Origin: Allocoleopsis franciscana PCC 7113
GTDB lineage: Bacteria; Cyanobacteriota; Cyanobacteriia; Cyanobacteriales; Coleofasciculaceae
DNA: 64,000 nt
Direction: 5' to 3'
Assembly (NCBI RefSeq): GCF_000317515.1
Contig: NC_019738.1
Span: 1,215,501-1,279,500 of the forward strand
Shown: one piece after another, positions 1 through 7,100 of the stretch
Layout: every line of letters begins with the position of its first letter
Position numbering within the stretch: position 1 is the stretch's first letter
Position numbers and translations under genes: made by a program
Notes under the pieces: model-generated
Told to the model about the DNA's origin: nothing
Databases searched by the model: none
The model's input: the letters and a program-made list of their open reading frames with translations, nothing else

Positions 1-1642
1 ATGACCCGACACCACTATTATCAGAATCTGCTGTCAAGGTAATCGATCCCGCAACACCACCCGTTGGAAAAAAGGGAAAGGTAAGCTGGTCGTTATTTAG
101 AGGGCCGATGATGATATCGTTGGTTGCTTCTAAGATGACATTCGCCGTCGGTAACATATCTTCAAGCACAGCTTGAGAGATAAAAATGGAACCCGGAGTA
201 GGAGAAAAGTCATTTTGCAAAATTTGGGCAGTTCCATTGAGCTGAGCATCCACCCCAGGAGAAGACGGTGCATTCGAGATAGTGATATCAGTTGGATCTA
301 ACAGTAATGTGCCAAGGCTACCATTGGCTGCACTGAGGTTAGCTGTACCATTAAAAATCAGGTCTTGTTTACCGGAGACTTCAACAAATCCGCCATTTCC
401 AGAAGTGCTGCCACCGCGAGCACTGATGCTCCCATGAAATGCAGTTATTTCATCAGCCCAGAGAATTACTTTCCCGCCATTACCCTGCGTCAGGGCATCC
501 GCATTAATCGTTGAGTCACTACTGACATAGGTACGAGATGCATTCGGTACTGTGCCTTTGCCCTGATAATCACCACCAATCAGTACTGTACCGCCACCAT
601 TCGCACCAGTTGCATCAACATTGGCACTAACCAGCCCGACCTTATTACCCAAGACCTGTACCGTACCACCCGTCTGTCCTGGTGCTGTACCAAACGCATT
701 CAGGCTACCAGAAGCGATCGCACTACCCGGCTCAGTTGGCACCTGTACGCCAGAACCCGTCAGGACCGTCTCTCCAGCCGCATTAACCGATAGTCCTGTC
801 GCATTTCCCCCACTCCCACCCGTTAGTAGTTGGGGCAAGGATAAAACGGGCAATGTCCACTGAGTCGGGGAATTATTATCCGATGCAGGGGGTAAAACCT
901 CTAAACTTAATACAGACCCAGATTGGCTCAAACGAACGAGGCTGGTTCCTGGTACGGCTGCGATCGTAATTTTTCCTACTGGAGCATTAACTTGCCCCGT
1001 ACTCACAACCGTACCACCCAAGAGCATCAGATCTTTTCCTGCACCTACCGCTAAGTTACCGGAGTTAACGATGCTTCCCGGTTGAGATGTGGTGAAGGCA
1101 AAACCATTAGGCGTACCGTTGAGCTGAGTGTAATCATTAATTCCTGCCGCATTAAACCAGTTATTACTAATCCCAATACTCGTAGCCGTCGTGGCAACAA
1201 AAGACGCAGGGACATTCAAGCTGGCATTAGAGCCAAAGATAATTCCGGCGGGATTCATCAGGTACAGATTGGCTTGGCTACCACTGACTTGAATCAGTCC
1301 ATTAATATTAGAAGCATTGCCACTGACCACCCGACCTAAGATATTTTGAGTGGTGGCATTGGACTGGAAATTCGCGGTTTGTCCCGTATTAACGTCGAAT
1401 TGGGAAAAGCTATGGAACAGGTTGGTTCCACTGGAAGAGGTTTGTCCTCCGGTGATGTCTAATTGATTACCCGTCGTGTTCACGAGGGTATTCGTGCCAT
1501 CAGCAGCAGGGACAATTTGTGCTAAAGCAGGCGTGACAGTGATTGCTCCTAGTAGGGGAAGTGCAGCTAGTGCATAACTAAGGGTTTTGGCGAGTGATTG
1601 AGTGAAGCGTTTACTGATAGAACTTACAGACTCTTTTGTCAC
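1..1642 (-). other. TPS/filamentous haemagglutinin N-terminal module with possible separate start (GTG 1642)
   Basis: This is the C-terminal module of the fused frame, given separately because it is probably the exported unit. A GTG at 1642 begins VTKESVSSISKRFTQ, followed by a hydrophobic segment and a TPALAQ-type cleavage site, the normal arrangement at the start of a TPS exoprotein. The domain continues as beta-helix-like sequence rich in G, N, T and S to the window edge. No clear Shine-Dalgarno precedes the GTG, so the start is a guess based on where the signal peptide lies. Confidence 0.6.
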
Positions 1643-2833
1643 TTTTGAGCCGTGCAACTGTTCTAGAACCCCCCAACCTTCCTGAAAAAGGGTAGGGCTG
1701 ATTCGTTTTCCCGAAACCCGCTCGGAGTTTAAACTCCGGGCTAATAGCTCAAGTCCATTGAAATGGACTAAAGTCGCCCTATCTCTTGCAGTCGGTTTCA
1801 ACCGACATCTTGCACCATTCGCAACAAGTTCTGGCGAATGGAATTCGCGGCTATAAAACCGAAGTCCGCCTGCGCGGACTAGAGGAAAATCAAGGGTTGT
1901 GAAACCTGCGTAGGCAGGTTTTGTTTGTGTAGCTGCGGTTTCAACCGCCCTATTGAGAAGGTTGCAAGATATCAGTTTCAACCGACTTTGGCTACTCGCT
2001 GTGGAATTGATTCCCTGGCGGGTTTGGAGAGAATGAATCAGTCCTGTCTGAACAACGGGGGCTATGTGTAAGTTCTGACTGGGTGGGGTGGAGAACTCAG
2101 CACAACTGAGCAATGTTACCGGAAAGTTGTCGGCATGTTGGCGGCGCTGGCGTGCCTGCTTGATGGCAATCAGTGCAAGGCGATTTTGCTGTGCCTTCTG
2201 CTGCTGAGTAATACTCTCTCGGTGAACGCGATAGTAGTAGAGTGGTTTGCTCACCCGTTGTACCTGCGTTACTTCCGACACTCGCAGGCACAGTTCGTAG
2301 TCCTCAATTAAGTCAAACGTCTCATCAATTCCGCCTACTTCGTCAAATACCGTGCGGCGAATTAATCGAAAGTGGAACGCCATGAATTTTCGCAACAATC
2401 CCATTGGAGAATAGGGAAAGCGGCAGCGATTTTCGTAAGCCTTTACTTCACCGCGTTCGTTCATCACCAAATAGTCGGTATAAACTAAACCCGTGGCTGG
2501 ATGAGTATCGAGTATCGCGGCTGTCTCTTCGAGTGCTGTTGGTGCTAGGATATCGTCACTGTCTACTAAGCCAATATAAGTACCAGTAGTTTGTGCGATC
2601 GCATCTTTGAGCGCACGTCCTCGCCCTTGATGTTGCGCCGCCACCACTGTTACCCGCGCATCTTGCTTCGCGTAGTCTTGAGCAATCTCGACAGAACAAT
2701 CTGTAGAACCATCATCCCAAACCAGTAACTCCCAGTCGCCACGAGTTTGTGCCAAAACACTTTCAATCGCAGCGCCTAGATAACGCTCTCGGTTGTAAAC
2801 GGTGATGATGAGGGAAATCGGCACTAGCATCAT
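1..2833 (-). CDS. GT2 glycosyltransferase reading in frame into a two-partner-secretion (FHA-type) domain; 3' end outside window
   Basis: Translating the minus strand from ATG at 2833 gives an open frame with no stop to base 1 (at least 944 codons). Residues 1 to about 235 are a family 2 glycosyltransferase: N-terminus MMLVPISLIITVYNRE, nucleotide-binding WDDGSTD, DXD-type motif LVDSDD, and the acceptor-side motif LIEDYELCLR. Residues about 290-385 are encoded by a run of palindromic repeats and have no recognisable fold. From residue 398 the frame reads a signal-peptide-like stretch ending TPALAQ, then a haemagglutinin-type TPS domain with NLFHSFSQFDVNTGQ and NLYLMNPAGIIFGSNAS. GT2 enzymes act in the cytoplasm, whereas TPS proteins are exported through the outer membrane by a TpsB partner, so one polypeptide doing both would be odd. 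The TPS part may instead start internally at GTG 1642. The two domain identifications are secure; expression as one protein is unproven. Confidence 0.75.
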   Translation of the reverse strand, partial: MMLVPISLIITVYNRERYLGAAIESVLAQTRGDWELLVWDDGSTDCSVEIAQDYAKQDARVTVVAAQHQGRGRALKDAIAQTTGTYIGLVDSDDILAPTALEETAAILDTHPATGLVYTDYLVMNERGEVKAYENRCRFPYSPMGLLRKFMAFHFRLIRRTVFDEVGGIDETFDLIEDYELCLRVSEVTQVQRVSKPLYYYRVHRESITQQQKAQQNRLALIAIKQARQRRQHADNFPVTLLSCAEFSTPPSQNLHIAPVVQTGLIHSLQTRQGINSTASSQSRLKLISCNLLNRAVETAATQTKPAYAGFTTLDFPLVRAGGLRFYSREFHSPELVANGARCRLKPTARDRATLVHFNGLELLARSLNSERVSGKRISPTLFQEGWGVLEQLHGSKVTKESVSSISKRFTQSLAKTLSYALAALPLLGAITVTPALAQIVPAADGTNTLVNTTGNQLDITGGQTSSSGTNLFHSFSQFDVNTGQTANFQSNATTQNILGRVVSGNASNINGLIQVSGSQANLYLMNPAGIIFGSNASLNVPASFVATTATSIGISNNWFNAAGINDYTQLNGTPNGFAFTTSQPGSIVNSGNLAVGAGKDLMLLGGTVVSTGQVNAPVGKITIAAVPGTSLVRLSQSGSVLSLEVLPPASDNNSPTQWTLPVLSLPQLLTGGSGGNATGLSVNAAGETVLTGSGVQVPTEPGSAIASGSLNAFGTAPGQTGGTVQVLGNKVGLVSANVDATGANGGGTVLIGGDYQGKGTVPNASRTYVSSDSTINADALTQGNGGKVILWADEITAFHGSISARGGSTSGNGGFVEVSGKQDLIFNGTANLSAANGSLGTLLLDPTDITISNAPSSPGVDAQLNGTAQILQNDFSPTPGSIFISQAVLEDMLPTANVILEATNDIIIGPLNNDQLTFPFFPTGGVAGSITLTADSDNSGVGS
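1723..1948. repeat. Cluster of seven short palindromes lying inside an open reading frame
   Basis: Perfect or near-perfect palindromes lie at 1723-1738 (CGGAGTTT/AAACTCCG), 1752-1769 (8-bp arms), 1791-1806 (GTCGGTT arms), 1834-1848 (GCGAAT arms), 1863-1880 (AGTCCGC arms), 1903-1920 (AACCTGC arms) and 1935-1948 (GCGGTT arms). The AGTCCGC palindrome recurs at 32826-32843. The cluster resembles the small dispersed palindromes of filamentous cyanobacteria, but here it is read through in frame. Confidence 0.8.
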
Positions 2834-3112
2834 GAATGTTCCGCGAAAACTCAACAGGACTGACCCAAGGAAAAGCAGCAGAGCACACCGATAAATATTC
2901 TGTAGCTATCCCTACAGGATGAAGCGACGTTGGTACAGTACATCCTGGCAGTGGTTTTGAGAACTAGACTTTTGGCGAATCAAACCAACTCCCATTAGGG
3001 TTAAGGTAGATTTTGTCGATTACCCTGAACCGAATGAGCACAGGATTATCGTCTTGATTTAAAGTAGACCAAGCTGGAAGAGAGCATTTAATACAGCTTA
3101 AGGAAGTGTACT
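2834..3112. other. Divergent intergenic region
   Basis: About 280 bases between the glycosyltransferase start (minus) and the ParA-like gene (plus). It should hold the promoters of both genes. I see an AAGGAAG ribosome-binding site near 3100 for the plus-strand gene and no convincing -35/-10 pair. Confidence 0.4.
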
Positions 3113-3880
3113 GTGTCCAAAATTGTATCGATTCACTCATTTCGGGGAGGAACCGGCAAATCAAACTCAACAGCAAATCTCGCGGCGCTTGTTGCCCGTT
3201 CGGGAAAGCGGGTGGGTATTGTTGACACGGATATCCAATCCCCAGGGATTCATGTCCTTTTTGGTTTCAATGACGAGAAAATAAAATACACCCTCAACGA
3301 CTACTTGTGGGGTAACTGTGCGATCGAAGATACCGCCTATGACGTTAGTTCGGTTTTAAAAGAAAAAGCCAATCAACGTAACAAAATTTATCTGATTCCC
3401 TCTAGTATCAAAGCTCGTGATATTACCCGAATCCTCCGGGAAGGCTTTGACTTTGGAATGCTCAATGATGGTTTACAAGACCTGATTGATGAGCTGGAAT
3501 TGGATTATTTGTTTATTGATACCCATCCCGGCTTAAATGAAGAAACCTTACTCTCTCTCACGATTTCCGATATACTTGTTTTGATTTTACGTCCCGATAA
3601 TCAAGACTTCCAAGGCACTGCTGTCACTGTCGAAGTTGCCCGGAAGCTGCAAGTCCCTAAAATGTTACTCCTAATTAATAAGGCGTTACCAGCCTTAGAT
3701 TTTGATGCCTTACGACAACAGGTAGAGAAAATTTACAATGCTCCCGTGGCGGGAATCTTGCCCCTTTCCGACGAGATGGTACAACTCGCCAGCAGCGATC
3801 TTTTTTGCCTGCGCTACTCCAATCACCCAATTAGTCAGGAGATGCAAAAAGTTGCTAAGCAAATTATGCAATCTAATTGA
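3113..3880 (+). CDS. ParA/MinD-family ATPase with Arg in place of the signature Walker A lysine
   Basis: 255 residues from GTG 3113, preceded by AAGGAAG. The N-terminus MSKIVSIHSFRGGTGKSN carries a deviant Walker A of the ParA/MinD type, but the first (signature) lysine of KGGxGK is Arg11; the P-loop Lys16 is present. A switch-I-like segment IVDTDIQSPG follows near residue 38 and a Walker B LFIDTHPG near residue 134. Such ATPases usually dimerise on ATP and position or segregate a cargo on membrane or nucleoid. No parS-like array was noticed nearby. The next gene encodes a small winged-helix protein, as ParA ATPases often have a DNA- or cargo-binding partner. Family assignment is firm; the cargo is unknown. 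Confidence 0.88.
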   Translation: MSKIVSIHSFRGGTGKSNSTANLAALVARSGKRVGIVDTDIQSPGIHVLFGFNDEKIKYTLNDYLWGNCAIEDTAYDVSSVLKEKANQRNKIYLIPSSIKARDITRILREGFDFGMLNDGLQDLIDELELDYLFIDTHPGLNEETLLSLTISDILVLILRPDNQDFQGTAVTVEVARKLQVPKMLLLINKALPALDFDALRQQVEKIYNAPVAGILPLSDEMVQLASSDLFCLRYSNHPISQEMQKVAKQIMQSN

Positions 3881-3912
3881 ATCGCACTAAAATCAACAGA
3901 TATAGCATTTGT

Positions 3913-4059
3913 ATTTGAGATGTGAAATTCTCTCTTCTCTTTCCTCTGTGTTCTCTAAGTCTTTGTCGTTTGTTATTTTTTACATCTCAAATGTATAGCG
4001 GTTCTCAAATAAGTGGATTACACTCAACTTCTGCCCTTTGCCCTCTGCTTTCTGCCTTA
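3913..4059. repeat. Inverted repeat and pyrimidine-rich STRR-like tract
   Basis: ATTTGAGATGTGAAA at 3913-3927 is repeated inverted at 3978-3992 with one mismatch, around a C/T-rich loop of 50 bases. At 4028-4059 there is a run of CTGCC(C/T)T-like heptads, a family also found at 26231-26262 and 35452-35640. This fills most of the gap between the ParA-like gene and the winged-helix gene. Confidence 0.6.
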
Positions 4060-4136
4060 AAGCCAACTACGTTGTACCTCACCAAATAGAGAAACGCTAT
4101 AAATAGTATATTTGCAACTTACAAGGAAGAAATATT

Positions 4137-4463
4137 ATGAGTAGGAATCCGTTGAATCCATCAGAAACCGGGGACGAAGAAAATGAAACTAACTCCCGAT
4201 TGAGCATGGCTGATGTTCTGACGTTACCTGACTTTGAACAGAAAATCGTCACCTGGATAGTGCGTAAAAAAGAAGTGAGTCTGACTGAAGTTGCCGCTTA
4301 TATGGAACAGGACAAGGAAAGCATTTCCACAACGTTGAATACCCTAAAAGAACAAGGCTTTGTGAAAGAATTGGAGGTAGAAGGTGAACAACACTACCGT
4401 CCTTGCCTTGCGCCTAAACAGAGAAGTCGGGCTTCTAAAAACCTTTGGCAGGCTCTAGATTAA
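4137..4463 (+). CDS. Small winged-helix (MarR/ArsR-like) protein
   Basis: 108 residues from ATG 4137 with an AGGAAG site about ten bases upstream. Residues 30-90 form a winged-helix pattern: a helix (DFEQKIVTWIVRKKEVSL), a second helix with the recognition-like stretch DKESISTTLNTLKEQGF, and a basic wing region (VEGEQHYRPCLAPKQRSR). The first 25 residues are acidic and probably disordered. It could bind DNA or serve as the partner of the ParA-like ATPase encoded 256 bases upstream on the same strand. The fold is inferred from the helix pattern; no specific family name is claimed. Confidence 0.7.
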   Translation: MSRNPLNPSETGDEENETNSRLSMADVLTLPDFEQKIVTWIVRKKEVSLTEVAAYMEQDKESISTTLNTLKEQGFVKELEVEGEQHYRPCLAPKQRSRASKNLWQALD

Positions 4464-4565: not shown

Positions 4566-7100
4566 GTGCCGAAGAAAATTTTGCCATCCGTCTATCCGTT
4601 GATTTGGCTACAAAAGACAGTCTGCTTTAGCCAAGTGTCTATGCACAATCATCGTTACAAAAGAGGTTGGGGAAAAACGAGGAGAATCACCTCTTTAATA
4701 ATGACTTTTTTAACCTCTGTAACACCACTATGGGTTTGTGCTTCTTTCTCTACACCCTCGGTTTTGGCACAAACTTCAGATGCCCAGAATTATCATGCAG
4801 ATTTACTGCTGAATTTAGGGATTCGCCAACATAAAACTGGTCAATTTGCAGCGTCATTAGACTCATTGCAGAATGCACTCACACTTTATCAAAAATTGGG
4901 TGATGCTCAAGGCATAGGCAATTGCCTCGGCAGTCTGGGCGATACCTACTTTTCAATGGGGCAATACCCACAAGCGGCAGGGTTTTATCATCAGAGTTTG
5001 ATACTCAAAAAAGCAATAGGCGATCGCACAGGTGAAGTTGAGGCGTTACTTGGTTTGAGCAAGGCTTATTTGTACTTAAGGCAAGAAGAGAGGGCAAAGA
5101 AGTTTGAGCAGCAAGCGCAAGTCATTCGGCGAGAAATTGGCAATCCCAGACGGCAAGCCGCTTTTTTGAACAACCTGGCTTTAGATTCCCAGTCACAAGG
5201 GGAATACGAGGAAGCGATCGCGTTTCATCTCCAACAATTAAAGATTGCACGGGAAATTGATAATCCTACCTTAGAAGCTGAATCTCTGCAAAAGCTAGCA
5301 CAGGCTTATGAGTTATCCGGGCAATCCCAAAAAGCGATTGAGTTGTATCAGCTACAACTGGAGTTCGCCCAAAAATCCAATGATAACGCTTTGGAAGCTA
5401 TTGCTCTAAGTCAGTTGGCAAACGCTTATGAATTATTGGGGCAATCCCCAAAAGCGATTGAATTGTATCAACAGCAGTTGGAAATCGCCAGGAAATCGGG
5501 TAATCGTGCCCAAGAAGCGATCGCCCTCAATCAATTAGCAATTGCCTTCGAGTCTCAAGGGCAATTTTCCAAGGCGATCGAGTTATATCAACAACAATTA
5601 GAAGCAGCGAAAAAAACAAATAATCGTTTAGCAGAAGGCACCGTTTTAAACAATCTCGCACTCGCTTCCCTTAAAGCCAACAATCTCACCGAAGCGCAGC
5701 CGAAACTTCTGGATGCGATGAAAGTTTGGGATGCAATACGTACCCAACTCGGCAACGACGAGAATTATTATGCTGAACAGGCTAGAAGTTATCGCTTACT
5801 GCAACAAGTACACATCGCTCAAAATCAGCCCGAAGCCGCCTTGGAAATAGCGGAACAGGGGCGAGTTAAAGAAATTGTCCAGTTACTTAATCTACGGTTA
5901 TCGTCTGAACCCGTAGGAACAGGTTTAAAAGCGGCTCCTGCTCAAATTAATCTACCTACAATCCTAGAAATTAAACAAATTGCTAAGGCACAAAATGCCA
6001 CACTGGTTGAATATTCGGTTATTTCTGATCAAGAACTATTTGTTTGGGTGATTCAGCCGTCAGGAGAAATTGCCTTCCGCCGCATTAATGTTAAAGAACA
6101 AAAAACGGTCTATCCTATTACTTCACTACAAGAGGTTGTTAACAATAGCATAGAAGCGATCGGTGTAAAAGGCAAAAGCCCCACAAGTACAGCAGAACCA
6201 ACCGATAAAATATCCCAAAATCAACCTTTATTGCAGCTAAATCAGCTACTCATTAAACCTATTGAAGACCTTTTACCCAAAGACTCCAAACAACATGTTA
6301 TTTTTATTCCGCACCAAGAATTATTCTTCGTTCCTTTTCCTGCATTAGTTGATATTACAGGCAAATCCCTGATTGAAAAACATACCATTCTCACCTCTCC
6401 AGCCATTCAAGTACTAGCGTTAACTAAACAGCAACGAAAACAAGTCTCAGGAAATAAAGTCCTGGTAATGGGTAATCCAACGATGCCAAATATGACAGTC
6501 GGGGGAGGAGAGTCATCACAATCCTTACCGCCACTGTTGAGAGGAGAGCAGGAATCCCTAGAAATTGCCCAATTCCTAAAAACTCAACCCCTGATTGGCA
6601 ACCAAGCAACAAAAAGTGCTTTCTTGGAACAATTACCAAGCTCAAAAACGATACATTTAGCAACTTACGGATTACTAGATGACATTAAGCGTCAAGGTGT
6701 ACCAGGGGGAATTGCACTAGCACCAGCGGGTAATGACAACGGTATACTCACGGCTGCTGAAATCCTTAACTTGTACGAGCAAACTAAAGACAAAAAATCA
6801 CCTTTACGGGCTGAACTCGTCGTCCTTAGTGCAGGTAACATAGGGGCTGGAAACCTCAAGAGTGATGGCTTAATAGGTTTATCGATGTCGCTAATTGCTG
6901 CGGGTGTCCCTAGTATCGTGATGTCTTTTGGTTCCGCATCAGATGCCTCAACCACTGACTTAATGATTGAGTTTTATCGGCAGCTAAAGCAGACAAATGA
7001 TAAAGCTCAAGCCTTGCGCCAAGCCATGCTAACGACGATGAAAAAATATCCTAACTCTAGGGTATGGGCGGCATTTACATTAATGGGTGAGGCGAAATAA
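4566..7100 (+). CDS. TPR protein with catalytically degenerate CHAT domain
   Basis: 844 residues from GTG 4566 (GGAGGGA lies upstream). A signal peptide or membrane anchor spans about residues 38-68 and ends PSVLAQT. Residues 75-430 hold seven or eight TPR units at 40-residue spacing, several nearly identical (AYELxGQSxKAIELYQ). Residues 460-840 are a CHAT (caspase-like, clan CD) domain. The His of the usual ATHG motif is Tyr701 (HLATYG), and the Cys of LSACxTG is Gly757 (LSAGNIGAG), so both members of the catalytic dyad are missing. It is therefore probably a scaffold or pseudoprotease outside the cytoplasmic membrane. TPR-CHAT genes are common in filamentous cyanobacteria, often near haemagglutinin-like genes, as here. 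Confidence 0.9.
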   Translation: MPKKILPSVYPLIWLQKTVCFSQVSMHNHRYKRGWGKTRRITSLIMTFLTSVTPLWVCASFSTPSVLAQTSDAQNYHADLLLNLGIRQHKTGQFAASLDSLQNALTLYQKLGDAQGIGNCLGSLGDTYFSMGQYPQAAGFYHQSLILKKAIGDRTGEVEALLGLSKAYLYLRQEERAKKFEQQAQVIRREIGNPRRQAAFLNNLALDSQSQGEYEEAIAFHLQQLKIAREIDNPTLEAESLQKLAQAYELSGQSQKAIELYQLQLEFAQKSNDNALEAIALSQLANAYELLGQSPKAIELYQQQLEIARKSGNRAQEAIALNQLAIAFESQGQFSKAIELYQQQLEAAKKTNNRLAEGTVLNNLALASLKANNLTEAQPKLLDAMKVWDAIRTQLGNDENYYAEQARSYRLLQQVHIAQNQPEAALEIAEQGRVKEIVQLLNLRLSSEPVGTGLKAAPAQINLPTILEIKQIAKAQNATLVEYSVISDQELFVWVIQPSGEIAFRRINVKEQKTVYPITSLQEVVNNSIEAIGVKGKSPTSTAEPTDKISQNQPLLQLNQLLIKPIEDLLPKDSKQHVIFIPHQELFFVPFPALVDITGKSLIEKHTILTSPAIQVLALTKQQRKQVSGNKVLVMGNPTMPNMTVGGGESSQSLPPLLRGEQESLEIAQFLKTQPLIGNQATKSAFLEQLPSSKTIHLATYGLLDDIKRQGVPGGIALAPAGNDNGILTAAEILNLYEQTKDKKSPLRAELVVLSAGNIGAGNLKSDGLIGLSMSLIAAGVPSIVMSFGSASDASTTDLMIEFYRQLKQTNDKAQALRQAMLTTMKKYPNSRVWAAFTLMGEAK

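What the first reader, a model, noticed from the sequence alone, without database searches (positions are those of the whole stretch)
1..2833. Glycosyltransferase and TPS exoprotein in one uninterrupted frame
The minus-strand frame is open from the GT2 start at 2833 through seven palindromes into a haemagglutinin-type secretion domain, over at least 944 codons. A cytoplasmic transferase joined to an exported protein's signal peptide at residue about 400 is functionally contradictory. Either this is a real fusion, a leaderless exoprotein with an internal start, or a stop lost through repeat insertion. I checked all codons between 1621 and 2833 for stops and found none.
Basis: partly seen in the sequence, partly recalled or inferred. 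Interest (0 to 1): 0.72.

Follow-up and report, generated by a model that had tools for sequence, protein, structure and literature searches.

The report
Glycosyltransferase joined to exported protein
In many cyanobacteria a sugar-transferring enzyme that works inside the cell and a large protein exported to the outside are encoded as one continuous protein with a signal peptide in its middle, so the cell probably cuts it in two during export; the oddity in this window is a real, old and undescribed gene design, not an error.

Summary
The minus-strand frame is open from ATG 2833 to the window edge, and in the genome it runs 2470 codons: GT2 glycosyltransferase, linker of about 200 residues, signal peptide, TPS secretion domain, repeats, C-terminal CHAT peptidase domain. 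It is no accident of this genome. I found the same order in one frame at 86 loci (67 distinct) in many cyanobacterial families, with linkers of 27-248 residues, mostly without palindromes. Single translation is supported by purifying selection across the junction in Nostoc (dN/dS 0.14), by a short-linker clade with no possible internal start codon, by co-divergence of both halves (r=0.83), and by a TpsB gene lying divergently just upstream of the GT start at 23 of 53 loci. The "stop lost through repeat insertion" idea is refuted: fusion is ancestral, and dispersed palindromic repeats later changed the linker in multiples of three. Most likely mechanism: the internal signal peptide sends the TPS-CHAT part through Sec, signal peptidase cuts after AxA, and an inner-membrane-tethered cytoplasmic GT plus an exported exoprotein result. 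That the GT modifies its own passenger is inference. No description was found in the papers searched.

The parts
2132..2833 (-). GT2 glycosyltransferase domain (GT-A fold); starts at ATG 2833 or 2830
   Evidence: Pfam PF00535; AF2 pLDDT about 90-98 for most of residues 1-233, Foldseek hit to chondroitin polymerase 2z86 E=4e-15; DD, DxD and catalytic acid kept in 66-68 of 68 fused homologues
1613..2131 (-). disordered linker, open frame, rich in dispersed palindromic repeats
   Evidence: pLDDT about 30; no stop in frame, 6-13 in the other frames; 2 synonymous to 10 non-synonymous changes against G001, so open but not conserved in sequence
1807..1986 (-). 180-nt (60-codon) repeat block present here, absent from the orthologue in G001
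   Evidence: alignment; dispersed copies; multiple of three
1619..1708 (-). 90-nt (30-codon) block present here, absent from the orthologue in G001; holds the TTG/GTG codons that could be internal starts
1520..1612 (-). internal signal peptide KRFTQSLAKTLSYALAALPLLGAITVTPALA|Q, predicted signal peptidase I site between bases 1520 and 1519
   Evidence: hydrophobic core in all 66 fused homologues measured, with an AxA-like site behind it in nearly all; dN/dS 0.20 against G001
914..1513 (-). TPS secretion domain (TpsA type, beta-helix)
   Evidence: Pfam PF05860; pLDDT mostly 90-97
1..913 (-). repeat passenger, continuing beyond the window to a C-terminal CHAT domain at G000:C1:1211002-1211946

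Best explanation
The gene encodes one polypeptide whose first domain is a cytoplasmic GT2 glycosyltransferase and whose remainder is a TpsA-type exoprotein ending in a CHAT peptidase domain. Shown by sequence: one conserved reading frame, intact catalytic GT residues, a hydrophobic segment with AxA between GT and TPS, and a TpsB gene beside it in many relatives. Inferred: the internal segment acts as a signal peptide in N-in/C-out orientation; Sec exports the C-terminal part; signal peptidase I cuts at ALA|Q; the TPS-CHAT part goes on through a TpsB pore; and the GT stays on the cytoplasmic face, tethered by the leftover hydrophobic segment. More tentative still: making enzyme and exoprotein as one chain gives 1:1 amounts and co-localisation, so that the GT glycosylates its own passenger before or during export, as the separate cytoplasmic enzyme HMW1C does for the TPS adhesin HMW1.
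For: Fusion in one frame at 86 loci, 67 distinct, linker 27-248 aa, CHAT in frame in 56. Junction dN/dS 0.14 over 24 codons in 16 Nostoc genes, compared with GT body 0.19 and TPS 0.09. Clade L099/L153/L156/L122 has no start codon from 15 codons before the GT-profile end to the h-region. ATG within 70 codons before TPS in 15/67 fused against 12/14 unfused TPS genes. A hydrophobic core in 66/66 linkers, always above the most hydrophobic stretch of any GT domain, with basic residues before it (mean net charge about +3). Free-standing relatives stop at '..RFxLRRK*', just where fused ones run on into the signal peptide. GT and TPS distances correlate at r=0.83, permutation maximum 0.17. TpsB (ShlB + POTRA_2) adjacent, nearly always divergent from the GT start, in 23 of 53 loci. 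GT dN/dS 0.18 and TPS 0.10 in the window pair.
Against: No transcript, proteomic or cleavage data. No signal-peptide predictor was available; hydrophobicity and motif were used instead. In one lineage (L051) half of the GT is deleted while the fusion frame stays open, so GT activity is not needed everywhere. No TpsB lies near the gene in the window genome (4 unlinked copies). Nothing shows that the passenger is glycosylated; the nearest solved relative is a polysaccharide synthase domain, so the acceptor could be a glycan. In the window the linker carries TTG/GTG codons that could serve as a second start.
Confidence: 0.72

Rival explanations
1. Two overlapping products: GT and TPS-CHAT are read in one frame, but the exoprotein is made mainly from an internal start just before the signal peptide, and the read-through product is minor.
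For: G001 has ATG right before the signal peptide; the window has TTG at about 1661 and GTG at about 1646; one Leptolyngbya-type group has ATG at codon -22 or -23; the split locus L140/L176 has its own ATG; in the window pair the linker shows no amino-acid-level constraint.
Against: 52 of 67 fused genes have no ATG within 70 codons before TPS and 15 have no start codon of any kind there; Nostoc junction dN/dS 0.14; the open frame is kept while linker length varies from 27 to 248 aa.
Confidence: 0.17
2. The fusion is a stop-loss artefact made by insertion of palindromic repeats, or by sequencing error, in this genome only.
For: The linker here is full of dispersed repeats and differs from the G001 orthologue by two insertions or deletions.
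Against: The same fusion exists in dozens of independently sequenced genomes, many with short repeat-free linkers; both indels are multiples of three; where a linker with a repeat-like stretch does break the frame (L140/L176) the result is two genes, not a fusion.
Confidence: 0.01
3. One uncleaved bitopic protein: the hydrophobic segment is a permanent membrane anchor, and GT inside and TPS-CHAT outside stay joined.
For: The segment has roughly the length of a membrane span, and a large folded domain lies on the cytoplasmic side.
Against: AxA-Q-like motifs sit at the normal signal peptidase position in nearly all members, and a TpsA must leave the inner membrane to cross the outer one; unfused paralogues carry the same kind of junction.
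Confidence: 0.1

Closest known systems
TpsA exoproteins of two-partner secretion (FhaB, HMW1; Type Vb)
   Same: Sec signal peptide directly before a TPS domain, long repeat passenger, TpsB gene beside it in many relatives
   Different: A complete GT2 domain of about 240-265 residues precedes the signal peptide; known TpsA proteins have an N-terminal signal peptide, some with an extension (PMC5422565)
HMW1C with HMW1 (Haemophilus influenzae)
   Same: A cytoplasmic glycosyltransferase belongs genetically to a TPS exoprotein (PMC3983070, PMC5422565)
   Different: HMW1C is a separate protein and not a GT2 (the latter from own knowledge); here a GT2 is fused in front of the signal peptide and its acceptor is unknown
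Extended signal peptide region (ESPR) of type V proteins
   Same: An N-terminal extension before the signal peptide
   Different: ESPR is a semi-conserved peptide extension that slows export (PMC5422565); here the extension is a folded enzyme plus linker
Cytochrome b/c1 precursor FbcH of Bradyrhizobium (own knowledge; no paper found in the library)
   Same: One polypeptide made into an inner-membrane protein and an exported one by signal peptidase at an internal signal
   Different: Unrelated proteins; FbcH makes two subunits of one complex
Chondroitin polymerase KfoC (K4CP), second GT domain, PDB 2z86/2z87
   Same: Closest solved relative of the GT2 domain by sequence (E=8e-52) and fold (E=4e-15)
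   Different: KfoC is a two-domain polysaccharide synthase without TPS or signal peptide

Membership tests
TpsA exoprotein (two-partner secretion) | TPS secretion domain PF05860 | tested here: met
   E=3e-43, over the curated cut-off
TpsA exoprotein (two-partner secretion) | Sec signal peptide immediately before the TPS domain | tested here: met
   hydrophobic core, basic n-region and AxA-Q-like site in the fused members measured; no dedicated predictor run
TpsA exoprotein (two-partner secretion) | signal peptide at the N-terminus of the protein | tested here: not met
   it lies after a GT2 domain, at residue about 407 here; hence 'variant', not ordinary member
TpsA exoprotein (two-partner secretion) | cognate TpsB transporter, usually adjacent | tested here: inconclusive
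   adjacent in 23 of 53 relatives; none adjacent in the window genome, which has 4 unlinked TpsB
GT2 glycosyltransferase | GT-A fold with DD, DxD and catalytic acid | tested here: met
GT2 glycosyltransferase | sugar transfer activity and acceptor | not testable with these tools
   needs biochemistry
HMW1C-type TPS glycosylation | HMW1C-family enzyme | tested here: not met
   Pfam assigns GT2 families only; works-like is possible, membership is not
CHAT peptidase | PF12770 with conserved His and Cys | tested here: met
   E=6e-71; HLATHG and SACRT motifs

The most novel reading that the evidence does not exclude
A polyprotein strategy for self-glycosylating secreted proteins: a glycosyltransferase built as the leader of its own substrate modifies the passenger in cis while the chain waits at the translocon, and is then cut off by signal peptidase and stays behind as a membrane-tethered enzyme. 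The GT domain would act as a giant, catalytic extended signal peptide.
Probability: 0.3. Interest if true: 0.85.

Novelty: new variant of a known kind. Interest (0 to 1): 0.62.

Why it matters
It breaks the working rule that the Sec signal peptide of an exoprotein sits at the N-terminus: here a full cytoplasmic enzyme precedes it, consistently, in dozens of cyanobacteria. Automatic pipelines will misplace the start or the function of such genes; a free-standing GT on a Calothrix plasmid is already named 'filamentous hemagglutinin'. If the GT acts on its passenger, it gives a one-gene system to study glycosylation coupled to export. It also shows a reading frame kept open while palindromic repeats enter the linker, a natural case of intergenic-type DNA becoming protein.

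Tried and rejected
Stop-loss or sequencing error in this genome: rejected by the relatives. Special nucleotide-level constraint on the linker: the low linker dS (0.03 against 0.36 in the GT) looked striking, but a sliding comparison showed that the linker diverges about as little as the neighbouring intergenic DNA and ParA gene, so the GT and TPS are the fast parts, perhaps through exchange with paralogues; no regulatory claim is made. Linker repeats as a general feature: for G011 only a 30-36-nt stretch of the linker is dispersed, so repeat-rich linkers are shown by genome search for the window only. Literature searches for GT-TPS fusion, CHAT-TPS, internal signal peptides and cyanobacterial exoproteomes found no description. 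Polymorphic-toxin and conflict-system papers were checked and do not mention this architecture in the passages searched. Dedicated signal-peptide or topology predictors were not available. The careful version of the GT tree did not finish; the quick tree was used.

Full report
CHECK. The frame 2..2854 (-) is open over 951 codons and runs off the window. In the genome (G000, contig C1) the same frame is 2470 codons long and Pfam finds GT2 (res 31-190), TPS (465-664) and CHAT (2154-2468) in it. The linker holds seven palindromes that belong to repeats dispersed over the genome.

IT IS CONSERVED. A search of 57 relatives with the GT part alone returned matches lying in open frames of about 1600-2450 codons in many of them. 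Their translations show the same order: GT2, a linker of variable length, a hydrophobic segment ending in an AxA-Q-like site, then the TPS domain. Adding named genomes and a 388-genome survey of the class, I classified 136 open frames that carry this GT subfamily: 86 are fused in frame to TPS and 50 are not. The 86 reduce to 67 distinct genes; the linker is 27-248 residues, median 58; 56 loci also show CHAT in the frame, and most of the others are cut by contig or locus ends. Hosts include Nostocaceae, Coleofasciculaceae, Leptolyngbyaceae, Oscillatoriaceae, Microcoleaceae, Trichocoleusaceae, Tolypothrichaceae, Oculatellaceae and Xenococcaceae. In the class survey 66 of 388 genomes have the GT subfamily, about thirty of them in an open frame of 1000 codons or more (not every one was opened). 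The GT tree (a quick tree; the careful search did not finish) needs only 7 changes of the label 'fused' against 34 in shuffles, so the state is old and mostly inherited. The window genome itself has two such genes among about 32 TPS genes; nine open frames there pair TPS with CHAT, by matching the coordinates of two searches.

IT IS READ AS ONE PROTEIN. (a) In 16 Nostoc genes the 24 codons between the GT profile end and the signal-peptide core have dN/dS 0.14, as low as the GT body (0.19) and close to TPS (0.09). (b) In the clade L099/L153/L156/L122 the GT runs into the signal peptide within 27 residues and no ATG, GTG or TTG lies between. (c) Only 15 of 67 fused genes have an ATG within 70 codons before the TPS domain, against 12 of 14 unfused TPS genes. 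(d) GT and TPS distances correlate at r=0.83, permutation maximum 0.17. (e) In 23 of 53 loci with flanks a TpsB gene (ShlB + POTRA_2) lies beside the fused gene, nearly always divergently within a few hundred bases of the GT start, which makes the GT start the start of the tpsA gene. (f) Free-standing relatives of the GT end with '..RFxLRRK*', exactly where fused members continue into the signal peptide, so the basic end of the enzyme also serves as the signal peptide's n-region.

THE WINDOW'S LINKER. Against the sister genome G001 (GT 87% identical) the linker differs by a 180-nt and a 90-nt block, both multiples of three. The 180-nt block consists of dispersed palindromic repeat. Twelve substitutions in the shared part are 2 synonymous and 10 non-synonymous: the amino acids are free but the frame stays open. 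The GT (0.18), signal peptide (0.20), TPS (0.10) and CHAT (0.08) are under purifying selection. Elsewhere in the family, one locus (L140, re-fetched as L176) is broken into two genes: its GT stops at RKPRSRK*, and the TPS gene, in another frame behind a stretch that looks like a cyanobacterial repeat, has its own ATG. L169 is fused with a frameshift further down.

MECHANISM. AlphaFold2 gives a confident GT-A domain (res 1-233), a disordered linker (about 235-435, with one weak helix at 403-410) and a confident TPS beta-helix. Fold and sequence place the GT next to the second domain of chondroitin polymerase KfoC. Aspartates of the DD and DxD motifs are kept in at least 67 of 68 members, and the catalytic acid in all (66 D, 2 E). 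All 66 linkers measured hold one stretch more hydrophobic than anything in the GT domains, median 23 residues before TPS, with net positive charge before it and, in nearly all, an AxA-like site behind it. The simplest reading is an internal cleavable signal peptide: GT stays inside, TPS-CHAT is exported and cut free. Cleavage, topology and transport are inferred. The further idea that the GT modifies its own passenger rests on analogy with HMW1C/HMW1 (PMC3983070) and on the fixed 1:1 coupling; a polysaccharide acceptor is equally open. L051, with half its GT deleted but frame kept, shows that activity can be lost while the leader stays.

NOVELTY. TpsA proteins are described with an N-terminal signal peptide, some with an extension that slows export, and TPS glycosyltransferases as separate proteins (PMC5422565). 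I found no description of a GT ahead of an internal signal peptide in a TpsA in the papers that could be searched; subscription papers and domain databases were not covered, and the architecture surely sits unremarked in sequence databases. I rate it a new variant of a known kind.

LIMITS. No expression data, no dedicated signal-peptide predictor, and counts drawn from sampled genomes with some MAGs. Several loci of different fetches are the same gene; duplicates were removed by GT sequence.

Noticed in passing
window 3113-4463: A ParA/MinD-like ATPase and a small winged-helix protein lie divergently beside the fused gene; close relatives of both lie near the fused gene in G001 and in four Nostocales loci (L096, L108, L122, L147), in different orders. 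A linked function is possible.
   Followed up: partly
window 4566-7100: A secreted-looking TPR-CHAT protein next to the fused gene; the genome has about 50 CHAT matches, about 32 TPS genes and only 4 TpsB.
   Followed up: partly
L214 4001-4759 (AP018208.1, BAY66642.1): A free-standing GT of this subfamily on a Calothrix plasmid is annotated 'filamentous hemagglutinin outer membrane protein', probably by transfer from a fused relative.
   Followed up: no
L042, L152, L155, L163, L151, L053: The same GT subfamily is also fused to a sulfotransferase-like domain (L042), to further GT2 domains (L151, L152, L155, L163), and in L053 to a hydrophobic stretch followed by a proline-rich tail, so it seems prone to fusion.
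   Followed up: no
L051 890-7393: GT half deleted and DxD motif altered, yet the frame into signal peptide, TPS and CHAT is intact: a possible pseudo-GT leader.
   Followed up: no
L089, L090, L091: Closely similar GT genes of cyanobacterial type in MAGs labelled Caldilineae, Gemmatimonadetes and Acidobacteriota; contamination of those MAGs is likely.
   Followed up: no
window 1-2833 against G001: GT and TPS diverge more between the two sister genomes than the linker, the ParA gene and the intergenic DNA do, perhaps through exchange between paralogous fused genes.
   Followed up: partly
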